Positions 10,336 to 25,960 of a stretch of 34,056 nt of DNA are shown here, piece after piece. Below the pieces are notes generated by a model. It saw only the letters and a list, made by a program, of their open reading frames with translations. It was not told where the DNA came from and did no database searches. Both the position numbers and the translations under genes were made by a program. Origin of the DNA: Lachnospiraceae bacterium (lineage in GTDB: Bacteria > Bacillota > Clostridia > Lachnospirales > Lachnospiraceae); the NCBI GenBank assembly GCA_021771755.1, contig JAETOL010000028.1, forward strand, positions 1 to 34,056, written 5' to 3'. Position 1 is the first letter of the stretch; each line of letters opens with the position of its first letter.

Positions 10336-11173
10336 CCAGTTTGCCCTTTACCGAGTCAATAAAATGACTGCCGGGCGAAAGTTGTGGCATCTATCCTACA
10401 ATGAAGTTAGGGAAAAAAAGCTTTCTATCCGCATGGAGTATTACCGACAGATCGCAATTGGAGAAATGCAGAAGGAAGAGACAGCCAACGATGTCTGGAA
10501 GCGGATCCGGAATAAAGCAGAGGTCAGTGATGTATTGGTGGTTAACCATGAAGGAGTAATCTCCTGCTTCTATCTTAGTGATGATCATCCCAGAAGAATC
10601 AGCGGATTCATCCGCATGGGAGCAACAGGAAGTGTAATCTCCATGGACACGAAGGATTATAAAATAGATGGGTATTCCGGAAACTGGAAGGTAACGGACA
10701 ATATCATAATTGATGGGAAGCAGTTTTATCTGCTGGAACATCAGGAATTCAGGGAGCAGGCAGCGAGGATTATTCTCGACAGCTATGGAAAATTTGTCAC
10801 GGAAACAGGATCCAGAGGATTTGACGAAGCTGCCAAAAAGAAGATCCGTGAATATAGCCATCCACAAGAGCATCCTGCAGAAAGGATAAAACAGCTGCAG
10901 ATTAAGCTGGAGCTTTATCAGAAATATTTTCAGAACGGGATGTATGAACGCAGTCATGAATCGGGAACAGAAGCCAATTATGATATGGTCGATGGACAGG
11001 TGAACAACCAGAAGAAAGCTACAGAAAAAATACAGAAGCCGGTGAATAAACTACCGAAGAAAAGGACTTCTGTGATAAAGAAACTTTATGAGAAACAGAT
11101 TGCCATTGCCAAAAGATCCGGAAAGCCGGTGCCGAGATATCTGGAGCAGCAGATGGAGAGATCTAGGAAATAA
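10325..11173 (+). CDS. YodL-like domain protein of conjugative elements
   Basis: 282 residues from ATG 10325, six bases after GAGGAGG; ATG 10319 directly abuts the site and is unlikely. The N-terminus (INQFALYRVNKMTAGRKLWHLSY) is the YodL-type start, followed by a compact domain (VLVVNHEGVISCFYLSDD, SGFIRMGATGSVISM) and a basic C-terminal tail (KRTSVIKKLYEKQIAIAKRSGK) that could bind nucleic acid. Such proteins accompany ArdC-like and TTRAP genes in ICEs; no activity is established. It is the last gene before the strong terminator that bounds the cargo island. Confidence 0.75.
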   Translation: MTINQFALYRVNKMTAGRKLWHLSYNEVREKKLSIRMEYYRQIAIGEMQKEETANDVWKRIRNKAEVSDVLVVNHEGVISCFYLSDDHPRRISGFIRMGATGSVISMDTKDYKIDGYSGNWKVTDNIIIDGKQFYLLEHQEFREQAARIILDSYGKFVTETGSRGFDEAAKKKIREYSHPQEHPAERIKQLQIKLELYQKYFQNGMYERSHESGTEANYDMVDGQVNNQKKATEKIQKPVNKLPKKRTSVIKKLYEKQIAIAKRSGKPVPRYLEQQMERSRK

Positions 11174-11193
11174 ATAGTAGTTGATAATTTAAT

Positions 11194-11232
11194 ATGCATT
11201 CGAAGGTATAATGCCTTTGGATGCATTTTTTA
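11194..11232 (+). terminator. Rho-independent terminator ending the ICE accessory operon
   Basis: A 13-bp stem with wobble pairs (left arm from ATGCAT at 11194, right arm ending ATGCAT at 11226, loop TATAATG) is followed by six T. It marks the left border of the AT-rich cargo island. Confidence 0.8.
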
Positions 11233-11248
11233 GTTCATTAATTATAGG

Positions 11249-11270
11249 TTTTAGAATCTAAATTCTAAAA
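11249..11270. promoter_or_regulatory. Palindromic operator candidate
   Basis: A perfect inverted repeat, TTTTAGAAT (11249-11257) and ATTCTAAAA (11262-11270) around CTAA, lies five bases upstream of the -35 box of the island promoter. It is a likely binding site for the HTH protein encoded at 11351. Confidence 0.55.
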
Positions 11271-11274
11271 ATAA

Positions 11275-11303
11275 TTGATCTATAAAGTTTTTTTTTATAT
11301 AAT
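11275..11303 (+). promoter_or_regulatory. Sigma-A type promoter of the defence island
   Basis: TTGATC (11275-11280) and TATAAT (11298-11303) are separated by 17 bases, with a T-rich spacer. The first gene starts 47 bases downstream of the -10 box. Confidence 0.7.
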
Positions 11304-11350
11304 AAAACATAAGAAAATTGTAGAGGTAGTTTGTTTTAGAGGAGTCTTAT

Positions 11351-11554
11351 ATGATATTCTGTTATGATAAATTGTGGAAAATATTAGAAAGTAAGAATAT
11401 GAAAAAGACAGATCTGATTAAGGAGGCAGGTATTACCAGCAATTCATTAGCAAGATTGGGTAAAAATGAAGATGTCCGATTGGAAGCAATAGCAAAAATT
11501 TGTATTTTACTTGATTGTAAATTGGATGATATCGTTGAGATATCACAGGAATAA
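11351..11554 (+). CDS. Small Cro/C1-type HTH regulator
   Basis: 67 residues, start after AGAGGAG. The protein is one HTH domain: YDKLWKILESKNMKKTDLIKEAGITSNSLARLGKNEDV followed by LEAIAKICILLDCKLDDIVEI, typical of the short YozG/Cro-like regulators. Such proteins dimerise on palindromes and often repress their own promoter; the palindrome next to the -35 box here is the obvious target. Being first in an operon with a methyltransferase and a nuclease-like protein, it may work like the controller proteins of restriction-modification systems, delaying or balancing expression. That timing role is inference. Confidence 0.88.
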   Translation: MIFCYDKLWKILESKNMKKTDLIKEAGITSNSLARLGKNEDVRLEAIAKICILLDCKLDDIVEISQE

Positions 11555-11576
11555 ATTACAAAGTAGGGATAAAAAA

Positions 11577-12050
11577 ATGAATTATACAGTGTCATTTCCA
11601 CAAGCGGATAACTTAGAACTTGTTTATCAGATTTTTGTAGATATGGATGAGCTGGGTTTAAATCGTTATTCATTTGCGGATAAATATGGTATGGCTGATA
11701 GACAAGGAGCTTATTATTTAAATGCAATTTGTTTTATTGGCTTAGCGGAGAAAAAAGGGAAAAATACATTTTTAAATGGGAGAGGAAAAACAATTCAGTT
11801 GCTTGATGAACCATTTAGAAGAAAAGTCTTTCAGTTAGCAATTTTAGAGAATCAATTTATTTGTGACACTTATCATAAGTGCAAGGGAAAAGATAAATCA
11901 GAACAAAAAGAAATAGTAAGTATTTTGATAGAAGGAACATATGGCATAAGTGATGAGACAACAAAAGAGAGACGAGCACGGACGTTGGTTAGTTGGTATA
12001 GATGGTTTGAACAACAACATTGTTTGATTGAGGAGAAATATAATGAATAA
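11577..12050 (+). CDS. Small island protein, probable winged-helix DNA-binding
   Basis: 157 residues from ATG 11577, which follows AGTAGGG; upstream in-frame codons lie within the regulator gene. The region FPQADNLELVYQIFVDMDELGLNRYSFADKYGMADRQGAYYLNAICFIGLAEKKG is strongly reminiscent of winged-helix modules found beside or fused to restriction enzymes and methyltransferases. The C-terminus contains RARTLVSWYRWFEQQHCL, helical and aromatic. I do not recognise a catalytic motif. It is probably a specificity or DNA-recognition partner for the adjacent methyltransferase and nuclease-like protein. Its stop codon overlaps the methyltransferase start region by eight bases. Confidence 0.7.
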   Translation: MNYTVSFPQADNLELVYQIFVDMDELGLNRYSFADKYGMADRQGAYYLNAICFIGLAEKKGKNTFLNGRGKTIQLLDEPFRRKVFQLAILENQFICDTYHKCKGKDKSEQKEIVSILIEGTYGISDETTKERRARTLVSWYRWFEQQHCLIEEKYNE

Positions 12051-12867
12051 ACTTTCTCCGATATTAAAATGGGCAGGTGGAAAACGCCAATTGCTTTCTC
12101 ATATAATTCCATTAATTCCAGAGACATTTGATACATATTATGAACCTTTTGTAGGAGCAGGAGCTGTTTTGCTTGATTTGCAACCATCCAAAGGTGTAAT
12201 AAACGATACTAATATTGAATTAATGAACATGTATACAATAATAAAAAATGCTCCTAAACAACTTATAGAAATACTTGAATTTTTTGAACAACAGCATTGT
12301 AAAGAGTTTTATTATCAAATTAGAGATTTGGATCGAAATGAGTATCAATTTAATAAGCTTACAGATCTGGAAAAAGCAGCTAGAACTATATATTTAAATA
12401 GAACTTGTTTTAATGGTTTGTACAGAGTGAATAAGCAAGGCTTTTTTAATACTCCAATGGGACATAATTCGTCAATACAAATAGTAAATAAAAAAGGAAT
12501 AATGGGAATTCATCATTTTCTAAATAATTCTGATATTAAAATATTAACTGGTGATTACACTATTTGTTTATCAACTGTAACTGAAAAAGATTTTGTGTTT
12601 TTAGATCCACCATACTACCCTACGAATTATAATTCTTTTGTACGATATGACGTTAAGGCGTTTGATGTAGAGGCTCAGATACAATTGAAAGAAAAATGTG
12701 ATGAGTTAACCAAAACAGGAGTAAGATTCATAGAAACAAACTCTGATTGTGAAGAAGTCAGAAGCTTATATACTGATTATTCGATAATTGAAGTAGATGT
12801 GAGACGTTCCATCAATGCACAAGTTGATGGGCGCCGAGGCAAAGAATTAATTATTTGTAATTACTAA
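12043..12867 (+). CDS. dam: Dam-family N6-adenine DNA methyltransferase
   Basis: 274 residues from ATG 12043, seven bases after AGGAG; an upstream TTG at 12028 has no ribosome binding site. The D12-class layout is clear: N-terminal PILKWAGGKRQLL, SAM-binding YYEPFVGAGAVLLD (about 32-45), the YLNRTCFNGLYRVN signature and the catalytic DPPY at 188-191. These enzymes methylate adenine N6, commonly in GATC. Within this operon it probably protects host DNA from the downstream nuclease-like protein. The recognition site cannot be read from sequence. The gene is noticeably AT-rich compared with the ICE backbone, in line with transfer from another source. Confidence 0.93.
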   Translation: MNKLSPILKWAGGKRQLLSHIIPLIPETFDTYYEPFVGAGAVLLDLQPSKGVINDTNIELMNMYTIIKNAPKQLIEILEFFEQQHCKEFYYQIRDLDRNEYQFNKLTDLEKAARTIYLNRTCFNGLYRVNKQGFFNTPMGHNSSIQIVNKKGIMGIHHFLNNSDIKILTGDYTICLSTVTEKDFVFLDPPYYPTNYNSFVRYDVKAFDVEAQIQLKEKCDELTKTGVRFIETNSDCEEVRSLYTDYSIIEVDVRRSINAQVDGRRGKELIICNY

Positions 12868-12878
12868 GGAGAAGGATC

Positions 12879-15155
12879 ATGACTGATTGGGGAAAATTAT
12901 TGACACCAGCAGAAGTTCCTAATGCAATGAGGGAACGGAAAAAAGCATATTTGGAAAAAACTGCATGGAGAATTGCCCTACCAAATGAAGAAAAGGAAGG
13001 CTGGTCCTTTTATAAAGATACTAAAAATCCAGAGAAAGTAAAAGTTAGAAAGAATAAGCCTTTAGATGAAATATTTGAGAATAGATTATGGGTATTATTT
13101 GCACAAATGGGATTTTGTGTATTGAATCGAGATAGGACATTTGCAATTAATTATTCGCAAAAAGGTCAGAATCTTTCGAAGCAGATAGATGTCTTTGCTA
13201 TGGATGAAGAAACAGTTTTGGTTGTCGAATGTAAATGCGCTGAAAAAATTAATGACAGAAAACAGTGGAAAACAGAGCTTGAGGCTATAAACGGATACAT
13301 GGGATCTGTTAGAAATGAAATAATTAAAAAATTTCCTTCTCGAAATGTAAAATTTATTTTTGCAACGCAAAACTATATTGTGGGTGAGCAAGATAAAAAA
13401 AGAATGGAAGAATTTAATATTGCATATTTTGATGAGAAAACAATCAAATACTATGAAGAATTAGTAAAACATCTCGGAGGATGTGCACGTTATCAATTAC
13501 TTGGATCATTATTTGCCAATAACAAAATAGCTGGGATGGATAATAGGGTTCCAGCTATCCGTGGGAAAATGGGTGGATACACTTATTATGCATTTAGTAT
13601 TCAACCTGAAACTCTTTTGAAAATTGGCTATGTTTTACATAGAAGTGAAGCAAATGAAGGAATGATGCCTACTTATCAAAGAATTATTAAAAAAGCTCGA
13701 TTAAAGTCAGTCCATGAATTTATTGAGAATAAAGGTTTTTTCCCAAATTCAATAGTAATTAGTATTGATTCCAAAAGACCTCTTCAATTCGACTTGGCAG
13801 AAAAGCAGGGATCAGATGACGTTGCTAAGTTGGGAATATTACATTTGCCTAATATGTATCGTTCAGCATATATTATCGATGGACAACATAGACTTTATGG
13901 TTATTCTGATTCAAAGTATGCGAAAACTAATAGTATCCCTGTTGTTGCATTTGAAAATATGGAGCAAAAAGAACAAGTAAAATTATTCATGGAAATCAAC
14001 GAAAACCAAAAGGCTGTATCAAAAAATTTGCGTAATACTTTAAATGCAGATTTGTTATGGGTTTCTGATAATCCAAGTGAGAGAAGAGAAGCTCTAAGGT
14101 CGAAATTAGCACAGGAATTAGGGGATAATAATGCTTCACCGCTTTATAATAGAGTAATTATCGGTGAGGATCAGTCGGATGATTATAGATGTATAACATT
14201 AGAAGTTATTTGTTCGGCAATTGATTCCACAGGATTTTTATCTAAATTTGGTAAAGACAAAACACCAATATATCATGGGCTTTTTGATTTAGATGATAAT
14301 GATAAAACTTTTGCATTAGTAAAAAAATATTTGTTTGGTTGTTTTAATTATATAAAGGAATTATTACCAGAAGAATGGGAAAAAAATCCGAAAAAGGAAG
14401 GTATTCTTTTATTTAACAATGCAGTGGGAGGAGTGATTCGACTTTTAGGAGATATAGCGGTAGAATTAAAAGAAAACGATCATGATCCAAAACAAATAGA
14501 TGATTTTATAGAAGAAACACATTATTATTTAGATCCGTTACAACATTATATACGGACATTATCAGAGCAAGAGAAAGCAGAATTACATTCTAATTATGGA
14601 GGAAATGGACCAAAACATTATTGGAGAAATCTTGAAAAAGCAATTCATGAAGTGCGAAGTTCTTTTGTTCCAGAAGGATATATAAAATATTGGGAAGATC
14701 ATGGTAAATCATATAATAGTGAATCAATAATGATTATGGCTCACATTGAGAAAACGGTAAGATCTTATATAAAGCATATTTTAGAAAAAAATTATTCTGG
14801 ACAAAATTGGATTCAGGAGATTCCTAAAAAGAACTATACATCTGCGACAACGAGTATGTCTAAATATAAATATGAAACTGGAGAAGAAAAGCCTATATGG
14901 GAATTCTTTTCCTTGGCCGATTTAAATGCAATTATTTTGTATGGTAATCATTGGACTAGTTTTTTCGAAAAATGTTTTACTCTTCCTTCAGAGCAGAAGA
15001 AAGCAGGTGGAAAAAAAGCAAAAACAGAGTGGATGACTATGGTAGATAAATTACAAAAAACGGTAGGACGTGCGAATTTTTGCGTAGCTAAATCAGAATA
15101 TGAAACCTTAAAAGAAATCGAATCTTCTGTTTTACCTTTATTAAAAAATGATTAA
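12879..15155 (+). CDS. PD-(D/E)XK nuclease-like / DGQHR (DndB-like) / HEPN-like fusion protein
   Basis: 758 residues, start 11 bases after the methyltransferase stop, after AAGGAG. Residues about 60-200 look like a restriction-type PD-(D/E)XK fold, with Asp104 (QIDVFAMDEE) and E117-C-K119 (LVVECKCAE) and an upstream helix Glu in ENRLWVLFAQMGF. Residues 240-470 form a DGQHR domain (D334-GQHR338, IIDGQHRLYGYSD; FMEINENQKAVSKNLRNTL), as in DndB-related proteins. The C-terminal region (620-755), with WEFFSLADLNAIILYGNHW and WMTMVDKLQKTVGRANFCVA, resembles Swt1-type HEPN domains, but the RNxxxH motif is degenerate. It is most likely the effector of the system. No helicase or ATPase motif is seen. 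Confidence 0.78.
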   Translation: MTDWGKLLTPAEVPNAMRERKKAYLEKTAWRIALPNEEKEGWSFYKDTKNPEKVKVRKNKPLDEIFENRLWVLFAQMGFCVLNRDRTFAINYSQKGQNLSKQIDVFAMDEETVLVVECKCAEKINDRKQWKTELEAINGYMGSVRNEIIKKFPSRNVKFIFATQNYIVGEQDKKRMEEFNIAYFDEKTIKYYEELVKHLGGCARYQLLGSLFANNKIAGMDNRVPAIRGKMGGYTYYAFSIQPETLLKIGYVLHRSEANEGMMPTYQRIIKKARLKSVHEFIENKGFFPNSIVISIDSKRPLQFDLAEKQGSDDVAKLGILHLPNMYRSAYIIDGQHRLYGYSDSKYAKTNSIPVVAFENMEQKEQVKLFMEINENQKAVSKNLRNTLNADLLWVSDNPSERREALRSKLAQELGDNNASPLYNRVIIGEDQSDDYRCITLEVICSAIDSTGFLSKFGKDKTPIYHGLFDLDDNDKTFALVKKYLFGCFNYIKELLPEEWEKNPKKEGILLFNNAVGGVIRLLGDIAVELKENDHDPKQIDDFIEETHYYLDPLQHYIRTLSEQEKAELHSNYGGNGPKHYWRNLEKAIHEVRSSFVPEGYIKYWEDHGKSYNSESIMIMAHIEKTVRSYIKHILEKNYSGQNWIQEIPKKNYTSATTSMSKYKYETGEEKPIWEFFSLADLNAIILYGNHWTSFFEKCFTLPSEQKKAGGKKAKTEWMTMVDKLQKTVGRANFCVAKSEYETLKEIESSVLPLLKND

Positions 15156-15181
15156 TGGAAGAGGTATATCAGATCATGTAA

Positions 15182-15222
15182 AATAAGGTGTTAGGCTTCG
15201 GACCCAACACCTTATTGTTTAT
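15182..15222 (+). terminator. Terminator at the end of the defence island
   Basis: AATAAGGTGTT (15182-15192) pairs perfectly with AACACCTTATT (15206-15216), extended by a GG/CC pair around a bulged A. GTTTATAATTA follows on the plus strand and TTATTTTACA on the minus strand, so it may serve both converging transcripts. Confidence 0.75.
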
Positions 15223-15230
15223 AATTATAA

Positions 15231-15500
15231 TTATATTTTCATTTCCTTCATCCAGAAGAATGCGGCAGAGAATTCCTTTGGTTTTGTGAGCACTGGCACA
15301 GCGAGAATTTCTTTCTCTACTCCAAGTACTTGTGCCAACTTTTTTAATAGTTCCTCTCGTGGCATACGTGCATTGGTCTCATACTGAGCAATTCGGACAT
15401 CCGCAGTATTTTCAGGAAATCCAACTGCCATGCCAAGTTCTTTCTGGGTAAGATTGTTTTTTCGTCCTAAATATCGTAATTTTTCTCCAAATGTAATCAT
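15231..15500 (-). CDS. Xre-family HTH regulator
   Basis: 89 residues from the second ATG, 15500, eight bases after GAGG; the ATG at 15506 is only two bases from it. Residues 2-65 are a clear HTH_3 domain: ITFGEKLRYLGRKNNLTQKELGMAVGF, then RIAQYETNARMPREELLKKLAQVLGV. A short hydrophobic tail ends with FFWMKEMKI. It is the last gene of the minus-strand mob/nucleotide operon, behind a hairpin, and converges on the island terminator. It probably regulates this operon or ICE transfer; the target is not visible. The protein ends exactly at the border of the cargo island, so loss of a longer C-terminus by island insertion is possible but not shown. Confidence 0.85.
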   Translation of the reverse strand: MITFGEKLRYLGRKNNLTQKELGMAVGFPENTADVRIAQYETNARMPREELLKKLAQVLGVEKEILAVPVLTKPKEFSAAFFWMKEMKI

Positions 15501-15574: not shown

Positions 15575-15988
15575 TTATTCTCCGGAACTTCCGAATGCAT
15601 CCGTGCCTCTTTCTTTTCCAAGGTCAAATACAAAATCAGCAATGATGATAGGTGTAATTACCAGTTGACCTACTCTGGTTTCTTTGTGTATCGTCTGTAC
15701 CTTGTTGCTGACATTGCTGATGATGGCATGGATCTCTCCACGGTATCCAGAATCAACCGGTGGCAATTCACAGGTAAGCCCCTTCTCTGCCATGCTGCTT
15801 CTGGGAAATACAAATCCGGCATATCCATCTGGAAGGATCAATCCGAATCCCAAAGGAACTTTGACAATTTCCCCTGGCTGGAGCGTACAGTCATAAGGCA
15901 TATATACATCGGCACCGGCATCGTTTTCATGGACGCGGAGAGGATTGTGTCCGGGAGTCAGCCCGAAATCAATGAGTTTTATTTTCAT
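15575..15988 (-). CDS. dut: dUTP diphosphatase
   Basis: 137 residues, full length for a trimeric dUTPase. All five motifs can be read: 1 AGADVYMP, 2 PRSSMAEKG, 3 PPVDSGYRGEIHA with the catalytic Asp, 4 TRVGQLVI, 5 GTDAFGSSG at the C-terminus. It hydrolyses dUTP to dUMP and pyrophosphate, which keeps uracil out of DNA and supplies the ThyX substrate dUMP. The start follows GAGGTG and overlaps the thyX stop (ATGA), so the two enzymes are co-produced and form two successive steps toward dTMP. Motif 5 is slightly shortened compared with the usual RGxGGFGSTG. Confidence 0.93.
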   Translation of the reverse strand: MKIKLIDFGLTPGHNPLRVHENDAGADVYMPYDCTLQPGEIVKVPLGFGLILPDGYAGFVFPRSSMAEKGLTCELPPVDSGYRGEIHAIISNVSNKVQTIHKETRVGQLVITPIIIADFVFDLGKERGTDAFGSSGE

Positions 15989-16752
15989 ACTGCATCACCT
16001 CTGCAAAGTAAAGGATAATCCAGTTGGAGAATTTCATTGGGCAGCAGGATATGATCAATGGAATGACCACAGCTCATTTTTCCTTCCAGGCATTTTCCTT
16101 TCTGACAAAATGGACCTGTCTGTTCTGGAGTAAAAAGAGCTGGACTCAATTCATACAGATCCTGCCAGATCATGAGCATCACAATTCTCATTTCATCAGT
16201 ATTTCTGCGGCAACAACGCTGACCGATCATATGCTTCCACTGATATGGGGTTGCGCTGATAATCAGTACATTTCTTAATCCTTGCGGTGTTGCATAACCG
16301 GCAGCATCATGGCTAATCCCGGCTTTGTACAGGCGGTCATAACAGTCCATGTCTTCCTGACAGCTTTCAAGATAAAGTGTCTGTATCTTCGGAGATGCAG
16401 AAATAATCTCGTAAGGAATCGCGAAATCAGCTTCTCCGGAATAGTTGCTGTACTGTAATGATGCGCTCATGAACTTTACTTCGTTCTGGTGCCGGGTGAT
16501 TTGGGAAAGGAATCTTCTGCTGGCACCTACGACAGCCAGGGTAATTACTGTAAATTTCTGAATGGCAGGGTGCGGAAGTTCTCCCAGGTTGGTCAATGTC
16601 TCATTCGTAAAGGATTGGTTATACAGATCCACCAGGTCATTCATGGAATGGATGATATGCCCTCTCTGGGTCAGCCTTGCGGCAAAAACCATATTCTTTT
16701 CTGCTTCTTTTACTGCAAAGCAGTTCAGGATTTTTGTTTCAATTCTATTCAT
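15985..16752 (-). CDS. thyX: Divergent FAD-dependent thymidylate synthase
   Basis: 255 residues from ATG 16752, seven bases after GAGGAGG; an upstream GTG-type start at 16779 lies before that site. The region FLSQITRHQNEVKFMSASLQYSNYS occupies the place of the ThyX signature (RHRX7S), and YQWKHMIGQRCCRRNTDEMR matches the C-terminal substrate/FAD region. ThyX makes dTMP from dUMP using methylenetetrahydrofolate, NADPH and FAD. Here the signature reads RHQ, with the serine spacing shifted, so activity is likely but not assured. The C-terminus adds a Cys-rich segment (GPFCQKGKCLEGKMSCGH). Overlaps at both ends place it firmly in the mob operon with dut. Confidence 0.8.
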   Translation of the reverse strand: MNRIETKILNCFAVKEAEKNMVFAARLTQRGHIIHSMNDLVDLYNQSFTNETLTNLGELPHPAIQKFTVITLAVVGASRRFLSQITRHQNEVKFMSASLQYSNYSGEADFAIPYEIISASPKIQTLYLESCQEDMDCYDRLYKAGISHDAAGYATPQGLRNVLIISATPYQWKHMIGQRCCRRNTDEMRIVMLMIWQDLYELSPALFTPEQTGPFCQKGKCLEGKMSCGHSIDHILLPNEILQLDYPLLCRGDAV

Positions 16753-17065
16753 GGAAGCCCTCCTCTCTGACCAATGCATTGAGCAGGAACAGATAATTCA
16801 AAGTATCTGTAATTTTCTCATTCCAAATGCTCTGATCATAAGATGCCTGTTCTGAAAAGCACATATCATAAATTGAGATGATATGTTTTGCCATCATTCC
16901 GGCAAGAGCCCTTTCGGGTGTACATTCCTGCAGAGCTGCAGCTGTTTTAAATGCACTGAGCCTGTCCGGGTTGTTCCCAGTATATTCTTTTGCTTTCCCG
17001 CGCAGGGTTTCTTCACAGCGGTTTACTTGCTGTATGAATAGCAAATTAAAGTCTGATTGTGTCAT
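16745..17065 (-). CDS. Small conserved protein, possibly MazG/NMAD1-like
   Basis: 106 residues, start overlapping the relaxase stop (ATGA) and stop overlapping the thyX start. All-helical pattern: LRGKAKEYTGNNPDRLSAFKTAAALQ, then ALAGMMAKHIISIYDMC and WNEKITDTLNYLFLLNALVREE. The order of a K/E-rich helix, a KH..S.YD helix and an ExxxDxxNY-like helix resembles phage nucleotide-modification-associated (NMAD1/DUF1599) or MazG-like proteins. Its location with thyX and dut supports a role in nucleotide supply or clean-up. This is a resemblance only; I would not assign an activity. Confidence 0.65.
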   Translation of the reverse strand: MTQSDFNLLFIQQVNRCEETLRGKAKEYTGNNPDRLSAFKTAAALQECTPERALAGMMAKHIISIYDMCFSEQASYDQSIWNEKITDTLNYLFLLNALVREEGFHE

Positions 17066-18738
17066 ATTGTTTTGTCCTCCTTCTTTTTGTGTTGTGAATT
17101 TGTTTTTAGGTTTTCTGTCTGTGCCGGTTGTTCGTAATGTGTATGAATGGATGGTTCCTTCCTTTCGAGAATGGCATCTACATTGGCATTGGCGATTTCC
17201 AGTTCTTTGTGATAATCCTTAAATTGTTTTACAACTGATTTCTGAGTAGCAATGGATTTCTGTAGTTCCGATTTTTGAGATTTCAGGACTTTCATCGAAA
17301 GCATCTTTCCATCCGGATAGAACGCTTTTAACCAGTCACGGGCTTCCTCGTAGGATTTGATTTCCGATAAATGATCCTGTCGGAATTTCTTTTTATTTTT
17401 CGATTTCAGAAATTCAGCATATATCGGTTTTGAAGCAAAATATTGTCCGGTGTAGTGGATCTGTGCGTTTACATCTTTCATTTTGGAAAATAGATCGGAA
17501 AGATGTTCCTGCGCTTCTTCCATCTTCAACCGAATGTCAATTTCCTGTGTCCTCAGATCTTCTCTGGTGTCATAGCCGTGATCCTGAATATAGATCAAGG
17601 TATCTGCCATTTGCTGCAGATTGCTGATCTTCACTTTTCGGGCATAAGCCTGATTCTGCATTGCCTTTACATTTGTCTGAAGATCCGTCACAAGACGAAG
17701 CTCAGATTTTACATAAAAGATCATGAATGAATCTGTATGATAATCGAGATTTGCAGCATTTTCTGTATTGTGAGAACTTTCATGCGGTTGACTTTTGTTG
17801 ATGAAATGGTTCTGGAATTGCTGTTCCAGATATTCTTTTCCATAGTTGCCTCCCAGAGATTCTGACGAGATCCGTCTATCCCTGTCCGGATGAAGATACC
17901 GGTAACTTCCCCTTTTCTCAATGACAGAAATATTGTATCTGTCCAGAAGCAGAGATTGGAATTCATCGAAACTTCCGGATAACTGCGAGCAGTCATCAAT
18001 GGCATCTCTCAAAAACTGTTTTTGTGTCTGAAATACAGTCGAAGCCGGTTTAAGTCCGGCAGCACGGATTTTCGCATTCACCTTATCCAGTTCATCCTGT
18101 CCATGGGTTTTCGTCCAGTATTCTCCTCTGGTCATTTTTGCCGGTGCAGGGGAAAGAAGATCTACCTGATGCAGTCCTTCCCGGTTGCACATATCCATGA
18201 CTTCCTGTTTCAGATAATCCAGTAATTTGTTTGTGGAGCGGTGTTTATATCCGGCTTCCTGTTCATGGGGCTTGTCCATGTAGTCCTGTCGTTCAACCGC
18301 ATATTTGCGGACACTATTAATGACGATATGGGTATGAATGTTACCGGAGCCATTGTGTCCATCTGTATGAGTGACTACCAGTGCTTGATAGCCGGGAAAG
18401 TTTTGTCTGGCATATTCCAGACAAAGAGCCTGGGCCTTTTCTCCGGTAAGTCCACATTCTGTTGCATCTGCTGGATCGAAACTGATGATGTAGTGGTGGC
18501 TTTTCAGTTCTTCCTTTCTTCTGTTTTTCTTGAAATGAGCATTTGTTTCCATACACTCAATATCAAAAGTTTCGGGATCACAATTTAAGCCATCCATATA
18601 AAATTCTTCCCGAAGAAGCTTTCTGCCATATTCATCCAAGATTGCTTTATTGGATTTTTCATCATGCTGATACATAAGGTATTCCAATGCATCAGAATAA
18701 TTTGAATTATGGCTTTTGATGTGTTTGATTATGGCCAT
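17062..18738 (-). CDS. MOBP-type relaxase
   Basis: 558 residues from ATG 18738, seven bases after GGCAGGTG; a GTG at 18747 is in frame but sits on the site. The N-terminal relaxase domain (1-230) has the His triad: H124 in VVTHTDGHN and H135-T-H137 in GNIHTHIVIN. The candidate nucleophile Tyr lies near the start (Y15 or Y21 in NSNYSDALEYL). The C-terminal half is coiled coil and basic (KSKNKKKFRQDH, KSQKSELQKSIATQK). It nicks oriT, binds the 5' end and leads the strand into the channel. It overlaps mobC by 32 bases, and the likely oriT lies just upstream of mobC. It converges with no other transfer gene. Confidence 0.93.
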   Translation of the reverse strand: MAIIKHIKSHNSNYSDALEYLMYQHDEKSNKAILDEYGRKLLREEFYMDGLNCDPETFDIECMETNAHFKKNRRKEELKSHHYIISFDPADATECGLTGEKAQALCLEYARQNFPGYQALVVTHTDGHNGSGNIHTHIVINSVRKYAVERQDYMDKPHEQEAGYKHRSTNKLLDYLKQEVMDMCNREGLHQVDLLSPAPAKMTRGEYWTKTHGQDELDKVNAKIRAAGLKPASTVFQTQKQFLRDAIDDCSQLSGSFDEFQSLLLDRYNISVIEKRGSYRYLHPDRDRRISSESLGGNYGKEYLEQQFQNHFINKSQPHESSHNTENAANLDYHTDSFMIFYVKSELRLVTDLQTNVKAMQNQAYARKVKISNLQQMADTLIYIQDHGYDTREDLRTQEIDIRLKMEEAQEHLSDLFSKMKDVNAQIHYTGQYFASKPIYAEFLKSKNKKKFRQDHLSEIKSYEEARDWLKAFYPDGKMLSMKVLKSQKSELQKSIATQKSVVKQFKDYHKELEIANANVDAILERKEPSIHTHYEQPAQTENLKTNSQHKKKEDKTI

Positions 18739-19102
18739 CAAAATCACCTGCCAATCTAATAACTTTTTTTCTTAACTGCTGTAATTCAGAAATACATTGA
18801 CGGATATCATCTTCCATTGCCATCGAACGTTCCCCACCAGAGTTGAAAAATTTTGCAATCTGATTCAGATTTGATCCAATCTTTCCAAATTCACCTGCCA
18901 GTTTTTTGATTTCATCTGAATCTGCAACAACTTCATATTTTGTTACTACCCTTTTTCCGAGAATCAATCTTCGTAGAAATTCAGAACGGGATAAGTCTGC
19001 TCTGTTTACAGATTCATTTAGAAATGCAAATTCTGTGTCTGTTAATCTCAGACAAATGATATGGTTACGATGCATTTCCTGAGGTTTTTCTTTTGGTGCC
19101 AT
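18707..19102 (-). CDS. mobC: MobC-family relaxosome accessory protein
   Basis: 131 residues from ATG 19102, five bases after AAAGGAG; a start at 19135 would add 11 residues without a good site. The N-terminus has a ribbon-helix-helix pattern (HIICLRLTDTEFAFLNESVNRADLSRSEFLRRLILG), and the C-terminus the MobC signature EIKKLAGEFGKIGSNLNQIAKFFNSGG followed by a helical segment. MobC proteins bind near the nic site, help the relaxase melt DNA and often repress the mob promoter. Being first in the operon and next to the inverted-repeat region supports this. Confidence 0.93.
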   Translation of the reverse strand: MAPKEKPQEMHRNHIICLRLTDTEFAFLNESVNRADLSRSEFLRRLILGKRVVTKYEVVADSDEIKKLAGEFGKIGSNLNQIAKFFNSGGERSMAMEDDIRQCISELQQLRKKVIRLAGDFDGHNQTHQKP

Positions 19103-19472: not shown

Positions 19473-19883
19473 ATGGTAAAGCCAATAATGAAAGATGTGT
19501 TCTTTCTGGGACAAAAGTCAGAACCTGCTACAAAAGCGGATTTGCAGGTGGGAAGGGATTTACTGGACACCTTACAGGCAAATCGTGCCGGTTGTGTAGG
19601 CATGGCTGCAAATATGATCGGTGTGAAAAAGAGAGTAATCATTGTAAATATGGAATTCGTAAATGTTGTGATGTTTAATCCAGTCCTGTTGAGCAAGGAT
19701 ACCCCGTATGAAACAGAGGAAGGATGCCTGTCTCTTTCCGGTGTAAGAAAAACGACACGATATGAAAATATCGAAGTAGAATATTATGATATGAATTGGA
19801 AGAAACAGCGACAGAAACTCACTGGCTGGCTGGCACAGATCTGTCAGCATGAGCTGGATCATCTGGAAGGAATATTGATTTAA
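19473..19883 (+). CDS. def: Peptide deformylase-like protein, copy 1
   Basis: 136 residues, start eight bases after GGAGG. Motif 2 EEGCLSL (Cys85) and motif 3 QHELDHLEG (His126, Glu127, His130) are intact, which gives the full metal-binding set of a peptide deformylase. Motif 1 reads CVGMAANMIG where the classic form is GxGLAAxQxG, so the glutamine that stabilises the transition state is replaced by Met. Deformylases remove the formyl group from new proteins, but this variant clade may be less active or act on other substrates. It is followed closely by the 90-residue gene, an arrangement repeated at 33.2 kb. The protein is shorter than the usual 150-190 residues. Confidence 0.88.
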   Translation: MVKPIMKDVFFLGQKSEPATKADLQVGRDLLDTLQANRAGCVGMAANMIGVKKRVIIVNMEFVNVVMFNPVLLSKDTPYETEEGCLSLSGVRKTTRYENIEVEYYDMNWKKQRQKLTGWLAQICQHELDHLEGILI

Positions 19884-19913
19884 TGAATTTTGTAATTACT
19901 GGAGTGGCTGCTT

Positions 19914-20186
19914 ATGGCATCGGAACGAACTGATGAGTTATACAAGACTTTACTGGACAGAGGATATCCAAAAAAATTCTGTGCAGAAATTGCCTATAAA
20001 AATATGAATACAGATTATACTGCCACCCGGATGCTTGGTTATTTGTATCGGGTGAGTAATCCCAGAATCGAGGATCTGGTGGATGAGATGCTTGCAATCT
20101 TGAGTGACAGAGATGCAATTATTCAGAAAAAAGAAATGGAACATGCCCAGGCTGTGATTAATGAGATTTACAGAAATGGGTTGTAA
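19914..20186 (+). CDS. Conserved 90-residue protein, copy 1
   Basis: 90 residues, start nine bases after GGAG and 30 bases after def. Helical throughout: LYKTLLDRGYPKKFCAEIAYKNMNTDYTATRMLGYL, then RIEDLVDEMLAIL and a charged helix QKKEMEHAQAVINEIYRNGL. The RGYP..FC.EIA.K.LNTDYTATRMLGYL phrase looks family-wide and is somewhat like a UBA-type three-helix unit, but I do not recognise a named family. The constant pairing with the deformylase-like gene in two copies here suggests a joint function. The C-terminal half is identical in the two copies, so it is under constraint. Confidence 0.75.
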   Translation: MASERTDELYKTLLDRGYPKKFCAEIAYKNMNTDYTATRMLGYLYRVSNPRIEDLVDEMLAILSDRDAIIQKKEMEHAQAVINEIYRNGL

Positions 20187-20351
20187 AAAGACAAAAAGAA
20201 ATCCGAAATTTTATAAGAGAAAAATATATGACAGATGGATTGCAAATATGTATGAAGATTTATTGATGGATTAATTATGATTCCTCTGAGAGATGAATAA
20301 TGGCCAGCATAAAAGCATTTGGAAATCGGAAAGGTGGGAAAGAGAAAACTG

Positions 20352-21827
20352 ATGAGAAATAGCAAATTATCCGATCACACCTTTAAAAAGGGCAAGTTTA
20401 TAACTCCAATAAATTCTTTGCCGATGATGCAGGAATTTGAAGATGAAAAATCATGGACGTATGGTCGTATGCCTGAGTATCTTTGGATTGGGCTACTTTT
20501 GAAATACTACGGGCGAGAAGAAGGGTTGAGAAAGTCCTACAGCATTATTTCTGCACTGCACAAATTAGCTCCTGATCTCTATACTGCAAGATTGTCACAG
20601 ATATTAAAGCTTGACACAGATATTCAAAAGAGATTTTATGACCATATTGTTTGCATGGGGGCTAAGAAAGCACTTGCACCGTTAACTATTTATCTTACAG
20701 CAAGCCGAGCCCCGGTTTTTGCTGAATGCTTTTACTGTCCTGAACTGAGCATTGATGATAGATGTGAAGCAATAGTTCAGACTATGCGTGAAATAATGGA
20801 TCATCAGTCAAATGAAGCAACTGATATCAGATTTGTGGCGCTCTATTTCAATCTGCTTTCGGGAAAAGTTCATCTTTTGAAAGATCAAGTGGATCTGTTG
20901 GTAGCCTATCCGGCATCAAAGCATGCTGATGAGATAATGCGGATGGCTCGTCCAGCAGTGCGTTCTTTAGAAATGATGATTTTAACTTTTGAGAATGTTG
21001 ACTCAGAATACTTGAAAGGATTTTGGAGGTGTGTAAGTGAAATGACAGAATGTAGTATATTCGCTGTTGAATTTCCAGAGGAAAAACGAAACATCACAGA
21101 ATACATGGAAAAGCTGCATGAGGTGTTTGTTTATCTTTCAGAATTGTTTACTGCAGCAGATCCACTTGATGAAAAAATGAATGTTTTATTTGGAATAGCA
21201 ACATATTCCTATAAACGTTTAAAAGAAATATATGAACATCATTTGTTTAATTCCATATCTGGAAGAAGTTGTGTGCGTGTTTTGATAGAAGACTATATTA
21301 TGATGAAATATCTGGTAAAAAACGAAGCATTTCATGACAACATCTGGCGTGATTACCAGTTGTACGGAATGGGACTATACAAGTTGGTTTTAGCCAGACA
21401 CAGAGAAAGCGGCGATTCGGGGGAATCTCACTTCGATGAAAAATATATTGAAGCACTGGTTAATGAATTTAAGGGAGAAGAATTCATTGACATGGATACT
21501 AAATATTTCGACAAGCAAAACATAAGGCTCAAGGCTGAAAGCGTTGATGAGAAGAATCTTTTCGGCTTATATTATGATTATGATTCTTCTTTTGAACACG
21601 GATTGTGGGGAGCAATTCGAGAATCTTCCTTGTTAAAATGCAACAACCCAGCCCACAAATATCATTGCGTTCTGGATATTGAGGATGAGACAAGGCTCAA
21701 GACTGTCCTACCAGATTGTATTATGGTTATGAACAAAACTGTGTCTTTTTTGAACGAACTGTACGGTGTTCCGGAGCAATTATTAAACGAGGTAATAAAC
21801 TTTGAAATCAAATCTATTGTTGAATAA
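20352..21827 (+). CDS. DUF5677-like protein, first gene of a two-gene cassette
   Basis: 491 residues from ATG 20352. The start is uncertain: GGTGGG lies 14 bases upstream, and in-frame GTG 20334 or TTG 20319 would add 6 or 11 residues. The N-terminal third (WTYGRMPEYLWIGLLLKYYGREEGL) and the long middle are helical. The C-terminal third has RSCVRVLIEDYIMMKYLVKN, YGMGLYKL and LYYDYDSSFEHGLWGAIRES, the pattern of DUF5677, a group of helical proteins seen in accessory regions. The invariant S...H in SSFEHG may be functional. The gene overlaps the next by 26 bases. Position in a cargo slot suggests defence or stress function, but this is inference. Confidence 0.68.
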   Translation: MRNSKLSDHTFKKGKFITPINSLPMMQEFEDEKSWTYGRMPEYLWIGLLLKYYGREEGLRKSYSIISALHKLAPDLYTARLSQILKLDTDIQKRFYDHIVCMGAKKALAPLTIYLTASRAPVFAECFYCPELSIDDRCEAIVQTMREIMDHQSNEATDIRFVALYFNLLSGKVHLLKDQVDLLVAYPASKHADEIMRMARPAVRSLEMMILTFENVDSEYLKGFWRCVSEMTECSIFAVEFPEEKRNITEYMEKLHEVFVYLSELFTAADPLDEKMNVLFGIATYSYKRLKEIYEHHLFNSISGRSCVRVLIEDYIMMKYLVKNEAFHDNIWRDYQLYGMGLYKLVLARHRESGDSGESHFDEKYIEALVNEFKGEEFIDMDTKYFDKQNIRLKAESVDEKNLFGLYYDYDSSFEHGLWGAIRESSLLKCNNPAHKYHCVLDIEDETRLKTVLPDCIMVMNKTVSFLNELYGVPEQLLNEVINFEIKSIVE

Positions 21828-22935
21828 GATCCATTTAATCCAAGCTGAGTATAAAGAATTACTTACAGCATTGGTGCCAAAACTAAAAAGCAGTCACGCT
21901 CCAGAAGTATTGGACGATATTAATTTGTTTTGGCTACGTCATATTGAAGAAGTACAGCTGTATCTAAGGGCTTGGTTTCCAGGAGAAAACAGTTATGTCT
22001 TCACAGCTGCTACATACATGGATTATGCTGATAAAGAACATCTGCCATTTTTACTAATGGGAGATAAACATGTTCTCGATGATCCGTTGAGCAAGTATGC
22101 GGAGATACGAAGCAAGATGCCAGAAGGCAAAGATGCTGAATTCCTGTATGAGCAAATAGGTGTAACGGCGGAAGATAACTTAAAACTATTAGAAAATGTT
22201 CATGAAGAAATTCTCATATTACCATTGAGACTTCTCAACCAATCAAATGCTCATAATTCTCTTTATAAAGTTGGAGAGCAGGCATTTGTCAGTCTATTTA
22301 ACGGTATAAATAGTTTTAGTGATTATTTTTCTAAGTGCGACAGTATCGACGATATTATACAATATGCTCGTGAAGATATCGGAAGACTGGTAATGTTTTC
22401 AGAAGATGACGATGCTTCTCTGCCTTTTAAGGAAAGGTTTAAGTCAGCATTGGCAGGAACGCAATATATGGTAGATGTAAATAAACCGGATTCGGATAAT
22501 TTCTTTATGCTTGTATTTGGATGCATACAACAAGCTATAGATGTTATCGTCTCATGTGTGGAATACGGTTGCATTCCGTATATTAGATACCCAGTTTCGC
22601 TTCATTATATATCCTTACTGTCGAAAAGTATGCTGGACATTGAACACATCATTACGCTTCGCTTCAAGATGAGTGTAGCATTTGTTGTTTACCAGCTTTG
22701 CGATAAGAACAGGCTTGCGACAGTTTGCTTTGAAGAGTTTTTGAAGAAAAAACAGGAGTATGATTTTAATGCAAAGCTGTTTCGTGTTTTGACCCAACAC
22801 GGCGTTAATGAAAAGAGTTTTTTAGGTCATACAATCACAAAGTTAGTTATTGATGAATTAGAAGAATTCTATAATATACTGTCTGGGGCAGAAGATAAGG
22901 ATAGTGACAAAGAAGAAAATCAGCCGAGCAACTAA
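21802..22935 (+). CDS. Unknown helical protein, second gene of the cassette
   Basis: 377 residues from a TTG start, nine bases after GAGG, within the end of the preceding gene. I recognise no domain. The protein is soluble and largely helical (KSNLLLNKIHLIQAEYKELL, RHIEEVQLYLRAWFPGE), with a SLFNGINSFSDYF stretch, an amphipathic but not convincingly membrane segment near 230-260 (FFMLVFGCIQQAIDVIVSCV), and an acidic tail. The overlap with the DUF5677-like gene means coupled translation, so the products probably form a complex. The pair is found alone between the def module and a terminator. Confidence 0.62.
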   Translation: MKSNLLLNKIHLIQAEYKELLTALVPKLKSSHAPEVLDDINLFWLRHIEEVQLYLRAWFPGENSYVFTAATYMDYADKEHLPFLLMGDKHVLDDPLSKYAEIRSKMPEGKDAEFLYEQIGVTAEDNLKLLENVHEEILILPLRLLNQSNAHNSLYKVGEQAFVSLFNGINSFSDYFSKCDSIDDIIQYAREDIGRLVMFSEDDDASLPFKERFKSALAGTQYMVDVNKPDSDNFFMLVFGCIQQAIDVIVSCVEYGCIPYIRYPVSLHYISLLSKSMLDIEHIITLRFKMSVAFVVYQLCDKNRLATVCFEEFLKKKQEYDFNAKLFRVLTQHGVNEKSFLGHTITKLVIDELEEFYNILSGAEDKDSDKEENQPSN

Positions 22936-23326
22936 CCGCTGCCTGGCTAAACGTAATGCATCTCTCATCCGAACACCGACCTGTAACGTTTATAAAAACC
23001 ATACTGTTTGTGGCTAAGGCAATTTGATGGTATGTATTTGATTTACATGCAGGTGTGAGGGTAATGATTGACCAAAACAGTATTCGTTCAAAATCGATTA
23101 ATTCGAGTTGGTTTCTTATCTTAATATCAGGGATTTTCAAAAATAGAATAATGAGTGCAGATCACCTTCGTATGATTCGATTCATACGGAGGTTTCTTTT
23201 TGCCCTTTTTTCTCAACTTTACTTTTTTTTACCGAAACATGTTGTATAAGACCCTCTGAAACTTTGGATATATAGAGGGACATTTATTTGCCGCCTCCAA
23301 AATAATGAAATGTGAGGTAATGACAT
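22936..23326. other. Non-coding stretch between cassette and excisionase
   Basis: About 390 bases without a convincing gene. It contains the terminator at 23164-23200, T-rich runs, and an imperfect CCCTCT/AGAGGG inverted repeat (about 23250-23280) upstream of the excisionase gene, which may be part of its promoter or a control site. The stretch 22940-23160 shows no feature I can name. Confidence 0.5.
23164..23200 (+). terminator. Rho-independent terminator
   Basis: ACCTTCGTATGA (from 23164) pairs with TCATACGGAGGT (to 23193), one G-U pair, loop of six, followed by TTCTTTTT. It ends the two-gene cassette transcript and insulates the recombination genes. Confidence 0.75.
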
Positions 23327-24568: not shown

Positions 24569-25960
24569 ATGGCATCGATCAGAGAACGAAATGGAAAATT
24601 TAATGTGATCTATTCCTATACTGATGCAGACGGGAAACGGAAGCAGAAATGGGAAACTTATGCTACAAGGGCAGAGGCAAAGAAACGCAAGAAAGAAATT
24701 GAATATAAAGAAGAAATGGGATCCATGATAATTCCGCAGTGTAAAACCATGAAGGATCTTCTGGCAGAATACGTTGCCCTGTATGGAAAAGACAACTGGG
24801 CATTATCTACGTATGATGGAAATGTTTCTCTCATAAATAATTATATCCTTCCGATCATCGGGGATGAAAAACTGTCGGAGATCAATACCCGTTTTATTGA
24901 AAAATATTATCAGAGATTGTTGAAAGCTCCGGCTGTGGTCAATCCTATAATTGGGAAAAGAAAGAATGAATATGTATCTACCAGTACCATCAGAGATATC
25001 CATAAACTCCTCCGAAGCTGTTTTAAACAGGCTGTCAAATGGGAGCTGATGGAGAAGAATCCTTGTATCTATGCGACCGTACCAAAACATAAAACAAAGA
25101 AACGGGAGATCTGGACTGCCGAAACTCTGATGTACGCACTGGAAGTATGTGAGGATGATCGGCTAAAGCTGGCAATGAACCTTTCCTTCTCCTGCTCTCT
25201 CCGGATCAGTGAGCTTCTGGGGCTTACCTGGGATTGTGTGGACATCTCGGAGGAAGCAATTGAGGAAAACCGGGCATATCTGTTTATCAATAAGGAATCC
25301 CAGCGAGTGAGCAAATCCGCTTTAAAAGAGCTGGATGCAAAAGATGTGCTGTTGATATTTCCGGAAAAAAGCAAGACCAATAAAACAGTCCGTGTTTTGA
25401 AAACACCGAAGACCGACAGCAGTGTCCGAAAGGTTTTCCTTCCAAAGTCTGTCGCAAAGATGCTGATCGAATGGAAAGAAAAACAGGATGAGACAAAGGA
25501 AGTTCTTGGAGATGAATACATGGACTATAACCTGGTCATGGCAAGTACGTTTGGTCTTCCTTTGGGGGATGGTGCGATCCGGAAGCCATTGAATCAGTTG
25601 ATTAAAGACTATGATCTCCCACCGGTTGTTTTCCACAGTCTCAGACACAGCAGTGTTACCTATAAGTTGAAACTGAATGGTGGAGATATCAAGGCAGTTC
25701 AGGGCGACTCCGGACATGCTCAGGTCAGCATGGTTACGGATGTATATTCCCATATCCTGGATGACGACCGGAAGAAAAATGCAGAGCTGTTTGAAGAAGC
25801 ATTTTATGAGAAAAAAGATCTGGATCCACAGATGCATCCGAATACAGCACAAAACACGGTAGCGGTTCCGGAAGGCGTGGATGCAGAGCTGCTTGCAAAG
25901 GTTCTTAATAATCCTGAGATGGCGGCACTGCTTGCGTCACTGGCGAAGACAATGAAGTGA
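24569..25960 (+). CDS. int: Tyrosine recombinase (ICE integrase)
   Basis: 463 residues, start after AAAGGGG, three bases from the previous stop. An N-terminal AP2-like arm-binding domain (MASIRERNGKFNVIYSYTD) and a SAM-like core-binding domain (65-170) precede the catalytic domain. The active residues are seen: Arg212 in SLRISELLG, His356-x-x-Arg359 in FHSLRH, His383 in SGHAQ and the nucleophile Tyr393 in DVYSH. It integrates the element at an attachment core and excises it together with Xis. The tRNA-Arg 3' fragment 1.5 kb downstream is the likely core, with only fic between. A C-terminal extension of about 65 residues follows the tyrosine. Confidence 0.96.
   Translation: MASIRERNGKFNVIYSYTDADGKRKQKWETYATRAEAKKRKKEIEYKEEMGSMIIPQCKTMKDLLAEYVALYGKDNWALSTYDGNVSLINNYILPIIGDEKLSEINTRFIEKYYQRLLKAPAVVNPIIGKRKNEYVSTSTIRDIHKLLRSCFKQAVKWELMEKNPCIYATVPKHKTKKREIWTAETLMYALEVCEDDRLKLAMNLSFSCSLRISELLGLTWDCVDISEEAIEENRAYLFINKESQRVSKSALKELDAKDVLLIFPEKSKTNKTVRVLKTPKTDSSVRKVFLPKSVAKMLIEWKEKQDETKEVLGDEYMDYNLVMASTFGLPLGDGAIRKPLNQLIKDYDLPPVVFHSLRHSSVTYKLKLNGGDIKAVQGDSGHAQVSMVTDVYSHILDDDRKKNAELFEEAFYEKKDLDPQMHPNTAQNTVAVPEGVDAELLAKVLNNPEMAALLASLAKTMK

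What the first reader, a model, noticed from the sequence alone, without database searches (positions are those of the whole stretch)
11249..15222. Compact, possibly undescribed defence island: Cro-like regulator, wHTH protein, Dam methyltransferase, nuclease-DGQHR-HEPN protein
Seen: four same-strand, tightly packed, AT-rich genes between two strong terminators, with their own promoter and operator, inserted in an ICE backbone. Known: Dam methyltransferases usually pair with a simple type II endonuclease such as DpnII/MboI types; DGQHR domains belong to DndB-like proteins of phosphorothioate systems. Inferred: here the methyltransferase appears paired with an unusual large effector rather than a standard endonuclease, and no Dnd modification genes are near. 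This could be a restriction-modification system with a DndB-like sensor, or a methylation-controlled abortive system.
Basis: partly seen in the sequence, partly recalled or inferred. Interest (0 to 1): 0.82.

Follow-up and report, generated by a model that had tools for sequence, protein, structure and literature searches.

The report
Methylase-paired three-domain nuclease defence cassette
A small mobile gene cassette pairs an enzyme that probably marks the cell's own DNA with a large three-part nuclease that probably attacks unmarked DNA, an unusual form of bacterial restriction system whose relatives come with several different partners.

Summary
The island is real: four same-strand genes at about 31% GC between two hairpins, absent from a sibling element. 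The 758-aa protein (BIG) joins a PD-(D/E)XK nuclease domain (key residues intact), a DGQHR (ParB/DndB-type) domain and a Swt1-type HEPN domain whose catalytic motif is lost here. The HTH gene is not conserved. The 157-aa protein is the detached C-terminal DUF7226 domain of Dam-linked restriction enzymes, apparently co-inherited with the other two in the closest relatives. The methyltransferase is DpnM-like, predicted GATC. All 9 BIG loci with DpnM-like enzymes also carry DpnII or DUF7226; 61 others with Dam-type enzymes carry neither. Outside one DISARM-like clade, every BIG with a broken PD-(D/E)XK site keeps the HEPN motif (12 of 12). Best reading: a restriction-modification-like system with an unusual, probably nucleotide-gated effector. 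A 2013 survey lists Swt1-HEPN/ParB fusions. No structure was predicted; nothing was tested at the bench.

The parts
11157..15293 (.). whole variable insert, bounded by comparison with the sibling element L125
   Evidence: blastn of the window against L125
11194..11226 (+). upstream terminator-like hairpin
11249..11270 (.). operator-like perfect inverted repeat, arms 11249-11257 and 11262-11270
   Evidence: function inferred
11275..11303 (+). promoter-like site TTGATC-17-TATAAT
   Evidence: not above the shuffle background
11351..11554 (+). Cro/C1-type HTH_26 regulator, 67 aa, possible controller
   Evidence: Pfam PF13443 E 1e-16
11577..12050 (+). stand-alone DUF7226 winged-helix-type domain, 157 aa, probable DNA reader
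   Evidence: PF23871 E 3e-16; PADLOC REase_II positions 274-423 of 426; alignment with endonuclease C-termini
12043..12867 (+). DpnM/Dam-type adenine-N6 DNA methyltransferase, 274 aa, predicted GATC
   Evidence: TIGR00571 E 1e-73; DpnM structure 2dpm E 4e-62
12879..15155 (+). BIG, 758-aa PD-(D/E)XK / DGQHR / HEPN-fold effector
13077..13235 (+). nuclease core of BIG, residues 67-119, with E67, D104, E117, K119
   Evidence: PF09002 E 9e-4, below cut-off; alignments
13554..14456 (+). DGQHR domain of BIG, residues 226-526
   Evidence: TIGR03187 162.8 bits, cut-off 58.9
14691..15149 (+). Swt1-type HEPN-fold domain of BIG, residues 605-757, motif degenerate (Q726, R731)
   Evidence: profile comparison 93% for the group that holds the window's protein; motif check
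15182..15216 (+). downstream terminator-like hairpin

Best explanation
A mobile restriction-modification-like defence cassette. The methyltransferase puts N6-methyladenine on the cell's own sites, probably GATC. BIG is the restriction effector: its PD-(D/E)XK domain cuts DNA that lacks the mark, under control of the DGQHR (ParB-type, probably nucleotide-binding) domain. The DUF7226 protein is the DNA-reading domain of a GATC endonuclease without its catalytic half, and directs BIG to unmethylated sites. The HTH protein with the palindrome probably delays the effector, as controller proteins do. The HEPN-fold end of BIG is inactive here but in relatives is probably an RNase second effector. Shown by sequence: gene order, domains, motif states, co-occurrence, partner exchange, insertion. 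Inferred: methylated site, cutting, nucleotide gating, recruitment by DUF7226, control by the HTH protein.
For: Methyltransferase beside or in the cluster of BIG in 77 of 80 loci; Dam-type D12 hits: 70 within 1.2 kb of BIG (window included), 2 farther, over 821 kb of flank. Non-homologous exchange of partner: MT-A70 in L073, divergent D12 in 6 loci; the D12-variant label changes at least 4 times on the BIG tree. Key nuclease residues intact in the window and invariant in a 27-row alignment. EcoDam contacts K9, Y119, L122, R124, P134 (PMC10073500, passage read) align with K9, F123, L126, R128, P138 here. DUF7226 is otherwise the C-terminal domain of about 430-aa DUF6996-DUF6997-DUF7226 proteins directly downstream of Dam-type genes in the loci read; the stand-alone copies keep its conserved residues. 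Partner rule: 9 of 9 DpnM-like methyltransferases next to BIG come with DpnII or DUF7226, 0 of 61 other Dam-type ones do. The window's methyltransferase does not group with those of BIG's nearest relatives (AU p 2e-81): module exchange. The host genome has no other D12 methyltransferase.
Against: No structure could be predicted, so the nuclease call rests on motifs and sub-threshold profile hits. Most relatives lack DUF7226, so BIG may recognise sites by itself. 6 loci (5 of the 80 and L126) carry a complete-looking DpnII system as well as BIG, which argues for BIG as an addition rather than the endonuclease. In 21 of 81 full-length relatives the PD-(D/E)XK site is altered, so cutting by this domain is not universal. 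Neither GATC methylation nor defence has been measured.
Confidence: 0.55

Rival explanations
1. Guard or backup system: BIG is not the routine endonuclease but a dormant effector that is released when methylation or restriction is disturbed by an invader, as PrrC is by an anti-restriction peptide. In relatives with the HEPN motif it would cut RNA and stop growth; in the window it would damage DNA.
For: 6 loci have BIG beside a DpnII endonuclease operon. The HEPN motif is present in 38 of 81 relatives. Anantharaman 2013 proposes this role for HEPN domains in restriction operons (PMC3710099, section 10 read).
Against: The window and most relatives have no other endonuclease in the cluster; the HEPN motif is lost in the window while the DNase residues are kept.
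Confidence: 0.25
2. Type IV-like action: the DGQHR domain reads foreign DNA modifications, as in the related GmrS/DUF262 enzymes, and the methyltransferase only protects host sites or regulates.
For: DGQHR is related to the DUF262 domain of GmrSD (PMC4619093, passages); weak GmrSD_N hits in 3 of 10 relatives scanned.
Against: Almost constant pairing with a methyltransferase is not typical of type IV enzymes (recalled); the link with GATC-specific endonuclease parts suggests sensing of lack of methylation.
Confidence: 0.1
3. An ordinary Dam/DUF7226 endonuclease system in decay: the DUF7226 protein is what is left of the endonuclease, and BIG is an unrelated passenger.
For: The DUF7226 protein lacks the catalytic DUF6996-DUF6997 part.
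Against: 75 stand-alone relatives are listed, most of 155-157 aa, at 63-99% identity (the search could only return proteins of 0.55-1.75 times the query length); separate stand-alone genes in L077 and L078 in another gene order; contig-length matches with BIG.
Confidence: 0.04
4. Epigenetic regulation or maintenance function of the mobile element rather than defence.
For: The cassette lies in a conjugative element with its own regulator; DndB has been described as a transcriptional regulator (PMC12704722, passages).
Against: Intact nuclease residues; association with DISARM genes and DpnII in relatives.
Confidence: 0.06

Closest known systems
DpnII-type restriction-modification (DpnM, DpnA, DpnII; GATC)
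   Same: DpnM-like methyltransferase; 6 relatives of BIG sit in such operons
   Different: no DpnII endonuclease and no DpnA in the window; the effector is BIG
Dam plus DUF6996-DUF6997-DUF7226 endonuclease systems
   Same: Dam-type methyltransferase and DUF7226 domain
   Different: here DUF7226 stands alone and a different nuclease is supplied
Swt1-like HEPN fused to ParB (Saro_3948 row of Table 1, PMC3710099, passages read)
   Same: ParB-type plus Swt1-HEPN domains in one protein; the Novosphingobium plasmid relative L002 is probably this protein or a neighbour of it (old locus tag not verified)
   Different: the row as shown names no N-terminal PD-(D/E)XK domain and no Dam partner; in the window the HEPN motif is lost
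GmrSD (type IV) and SspE
   Same: related ParB-fold domain with a DGQ(H/Q)R motif next to a nuclease
   Different: no HNH domain, a methyltransferase partner instead, low GmrSD_N scores
DndB / DpdB
   Same: DGQHR domain
   Different: twice the length, two added nuclease-type domains, scores far under the equivalog cut-offs
DISARM
   Same: 9 of 80 relatives follow DrmA-, DrmB- and NERD-helicase-like genes (PADLOC/Pfam run on L025 only; the other 8 by similarity)
   Different: no drm gene among the 15 window genes scanned; BIG is not a known DISARM part in the papers found
PrrC/RloC with type I systems
   Same: HEPN-type effector tied to restriction-modification
   Different: other NTPase type, and the HEPN motif is inactive in the window

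Membership tests
Type II restriction-modification, GATC (DpnII kind) | GATC adenine-N6 methyltransferase | tested here: met
   by sequence only: DpnM E 4e-62 and the five EcoDam contact positions; the site itself is not measured
Type II restriction-modification, GATC (DpnII kind) | DpnII-fold or DUF6997 endonuclease in the operon | tested here: not met
   only the DUF7226 part is present; BIG shows no DpnII or DUF6997 match
Type II restriction-modification, GATC (DpnII kind) | cleaves unmethylated, spares methylated site | not testable with these tools
   needs the bench
Dnd (DndB) or Dpd (DpdB) | DGQHR domain | tested here: met
   TIGR03187 162.8 bits, cut-off 58.85
Dnd (DndB) or Dpd (DpdB) | equivalog score over the curated cut-off | tested here: not met
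   86.9 bits of 450 (DGQHR_dnd_1) and 80.3 of 300 (DpdB)
Dnd (DndB) or Dpd (DpdB) | Dnd or Dpd modification genes nearby | tested here: not met
   none among the 15 window genes scanned; not every window ORF was scanned
HEPN RNase effector | HEPN fold | tested here: met
   profile comparison 95% and 93% against Swt1-type HEPN, control region 0.5%; Pfam hits below cut-off in 7 of 10 relatives
HEPN RNase effector | R-x4-6-H motif | tested here: not met
   window has Q726 and R731; present in 38 of 81 relatives
PD-(D/E)XK nuclease | E...D...ExK residues | tested here: met
   E67, D104, E117, K119
PD-(D/E)XK nuclease | fold | tested here: inconclusive
   sub-threshold Card1 and Hjc hits; structure prediction unavailable
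DISARM | drmA and drmB genes | tested here: not met
   absent among the window genes scanned
GmrSD | DUF262 plus HNH domain | tested here: not met
   neither listed for the window protein at E up to 1

The most novel reading that the evidence does not exclude
BIG is a modular self/non-self machine in which one nucleotide-switched DGQHR core, reading the absence of N6-methyladenine, can fire either of two built-in nucleases: a DNase (classical restriction) or a HEPN RNase (suicide). Lineages keep at least one, drop the other freely, and drop both once DISARM-like helicase-nuclease genes take over. Interchangeable readers (DUF7226, DpnII) set the site. The window would be the DNase-only, DUF7226-guided form.
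Probability: 0.3. Interest if true: 0.82.

Novelty: new variant of a known kind. Interest (0 to 1): 0.62.

Why it matters
Over 4000 proteins match BIG, yet the profile libraries name only its DGQHR domain. If the reading holds, methyltransferase-guided restriction extends to a ParB-type switch protein with two candidate nuclease heads, and the natural loss pattern offers a direct way to ask when bacteria answer an invader by cutting its DNA and when by stopping the cell. A stand-alone DUF7226 reader would also show how an endonuclease can be taken apart and its DNA-reading part re-used.

Tried and rejected
Structure prediction of BIG was not possible. Viral contigs gave one close relative (L109, 53%), beside a D12 gene in a phage-like contig, and three distant ones; single-protein scans of viral contigs gave nothing. 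BIG was found in 2 of 397 genomes of the family and 1 of 398 of the phylum, the window's own included: rare and patchy. Plasmid records gave 39 matches, 5 covering most of BIG at about 30%, phage records 4 partial ones. Metagenome contigs could not be scanned, so the neighbourhood of the 62-99% relatives (P0001-P0042) was not read; the contig-length comparison is an indirect substitute.

Own error found on re-checking: the gene layout hid intact methyltransferase genes in L009 and L080 because they overlap an over-extended BIG frame; they are intact. The labels noMT for these two are wrong, and the methyltransferase tree was rebuilt with them. Rejected: phosphorothioate or 7-deazaguanine role (scores); DUF7226 as a decayed endonuclease; BIG as an orphan effector. 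Limits of the statistics: HEPN-minus rows are mostly one clade (3 changes on the tree), independent pairs gave no significant result, the nine DISARM-like rows are one clade, K-to-R changes counted as broken may be active (with the EDER rows counted intact Fisher p rises from 2e-4 to 0.0025), the AU groups were chosen after seeing trees, and the Mantel correlation (r 0.41, 0 of 2000 permutations) does not remove common descent.
Full report
What is there. The window is part of a conjugative or integrative element (relaxase 17065-18747, phage-type integrase 24569-25957, ArdC-N and LPD18 proteins). Between a hairpin at 11194-11226 and another at 15182-15216 lie four same-strand genes with GC near 0.31. 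The island is therefore a cargo slot, not backbone. A palindrome and a promoter-like site precede the first gene; promoter-like sites as a class are not enriched over shuffles.

The proteins. HTH_26 regulator. A 157-aa DUF7226 protein that matches only the last third of a PADLOC type II endonuclease model. A D12 methyltransferase closest in solved structures to DpnM of the DpnII system (E 4e-62). A 758-aa protein, here BIG, with a DGQHR domain at 162.8 bits (cut-off 58.9) and no match to a named whole-length family over cut-off. Its N-terminal part has E67, D104, E117 and K119, the PD-(D/E)XK pattern, invariant in 27 relatives of 47% identity or more; profile support (Card1, Hjc) is below cut-off. 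Its C-terminal part matches Swt1-type HEPN by profile comparison (95% for relatives with the motif, 93% for the group without it that contains the window; control region 0.5%) and by sub-threshold Pfam hits in 7 of 10 relatives. The catalytic R-N-x3-H motif seen in relatives reads Q...R in the window.

Co-inheritance. A scan of 84,980 species genomes gave 224 relatives; the best 80 were kept. The query alignment was made without regard to neighbours. 62 have a Dam-type D12 gene within 200 bases on the same strand, 2 on the other strand, 4 with a DpnII endonuclease gene between, 1 beside a split BIG (L074), 1 in a DpnII operon facing BIG (L062), 6 have a divergent D12 gene (5 adjacent; in L082 two genes away) and 1 (L073) an adjacent MT-A70 gene: 77 of 80. 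L070 and L076 end at the contig edge; L085 has a D12 gene 4 kb upstream. Dam-type hits within 1.2 kb number 70 with the window counted, against 2 in the other 821 kb of flank. Distances of BIG and methyltransferase correlate over 64 pairs (Mantel r 0.41, no permutation of 2000 as high), though common descent is not removed.

Partners. Among 70 BIG-linked Dam-type methyltransferases that could be placed (69 full-length rows and L126, window included), 9 are DpnM-like and lie outside a clade of 59 (support 100). All 9 have either a DpnII endonuclease (L059-L062, L065, L126) or a stand-alone DUF7226 gene (window, L077, L078); none of the other 61 (the 59, and L022 and L037) has a DpnII, DUF7226 or DUF7226-endonuclease match in the DNA held. 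In the BIG tree the window lies in a clade with L006, L007, L008, L012 and L079 (support 100), whose methyltransferases belong to the other type. Holding the window's methyltransferase with those of L006, L007, L008 and L079 is rejected (p 2e-81); holding its BIG with L077, L078 and L126 is rejected more weakly (p 0.015). So a DpnM-like methyltransferase appears to have replaced the older partner, with DUF7226 present alongside it.

DUF7226. In 6 Dam-linked cases read in detail, DUF7226 is the C-terminal domain of an endonuclease-like protein directly downstream of a Dam-type gene (L088-L091, L130, L132); Pfam gives DUF6996-DUF6997-DUF7226 for L088. The three stand-alone proteins begin near the domain border and keep its conserved residues. 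75 stand-alone clusters match the window's protein, mostly 155-157 aa. Among the 42 BIG clusters of 62-99% identity, 16 share the exact length of their longest contig with both a DUF7226 cluster and a close methyltransferase cluster, and 17 with a DUF7226 cluster; lengths shifted by 1-20 bases match 0.16 times on average. Of 78 more distant BIG clusters 2 match, one of which is a fragment of a 72% relative. This implies shared contigs, not read contigs.

Nuclease heads. Over 81 relatives with both ends, the PD-(D/E)XK set is altered in 21 and the HEPN motif present in 38. Nine relatives follow DrmA-, DrmB- and NERD-helicase-like genes; all nine have lost both, and they form one clade. In the other 72: both intact 26, only PD-(D/E)XK 34, only HEPN 12, neither 0 (Fisher p 2e-4; one of the 12, L003, has a looser R-T-x3-H form). 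The ten losses of the PD-(D/E)XK set outside the DISARM-like clade all fall on HEPN-plus lineages, which make up 58% of the branch length (p 0.004). Independent-pair analysis had too few informative pairs to decide. The DGQHR motif reads otherwise in only one row (L054, DSQHR). So the DGQHR part is the constant core and the two nuclease-type parts are partly exchangeable.

Mechanism. EcoDam contacts GATC through K9, L122, R124, P134 and intercalates Y119 (passage in PMC10073500); the window has K9, L126, R128, P138 and F123 at the aligned places, so GATC methylation is predicted. A bacterial DndB-like ParB-fold protein binds ATP and GTP (PMC12704722, passages), so nucleotide control of BIG is plausible. 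The best-supported model is restriction of unmethylated DNA by the PD-(D/E)XK domain, with DUF7226 as site reader. The main rival is a guard role like PrrC, proposed in general for HEPN domains tied to restriction systems (PMC3710099, section 10 read).

Known or new. Searches for DGQHR, DUF7226 and combinations of DndB, ParB, HEPN, Swt1, DpnII, DISARM and methyltransferase terms returned no paper whose listing or passages seen describe this cassette; subscription papers and preprints are not in the library. Table 1 of PMC3710099 (passages) lists Swt1-like HEPN fused to ParB, with Saro_3948 as example and mostly active, so the ParB-HEPN combination is known. The methyltransferase pairing, the DUF7226 and DpnII links, the DISARM-like form and the loss pattern I found in no passage seen. 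I rate it a new variant of a known kind.

Noticed in passing
L023, L025, L027, L028, L031, L032, L034, L035, L038: DrmA-, DrmB- and NERD-helicase-like genes directly upstream of a D12 methyltransferase and a BIG with both nuclease motifs lost: a DISARM-like variant.
   Followed up: partly
L002 (5983-12481) and L003 (5878-12582): Distant BIG relatives on two alphaproteobacterial plasmids lie beside a small DGQHR protein, a radical SAM protein and a GHKL-type ATPase, with no Dam-type gene near: perhaps another DNA modification system.
   Followed up: partly
L082, 4124-10313: Divergent D12 methyltransferase, AAA ATPase, PtuB-like HNH protein and BIG in one run of genes: Septu-like parts inside a BIG cluster.
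   Followed up: partly
window 19870-23168: A second variable stretch of the same element, different in L125; it holds a 502-aa DUF5677 protein (20319-21827) and a 377-aa protein without Pfam match.
   Followed up: no
window 19473-19883 and 33202-33612: Both places match the same stretch of the sibling L125 (86% and 90%), so a short gene of 136 aa appears twice in the window.
   Followed up: no
L085, 2756-10244: D12 methyltransferase, two large ORFs and then BIG; the ORF upstream of BIG looks by eye like an McrC-type protein (not scanned).
   Followed up: no
L040, L054, L055, L063: A second, smaller DndB-like protein of about 370-396 aa lies within 4.5 kb of BIG (cluster).
   Followed up: no
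window 15575-16779, minus strand: A dUTPase-like frame (by eye) and a ThyX-type thymidylate synthase (Pfam Thy1) lie in the element next to the island, also present in L125.
   Followed up: no
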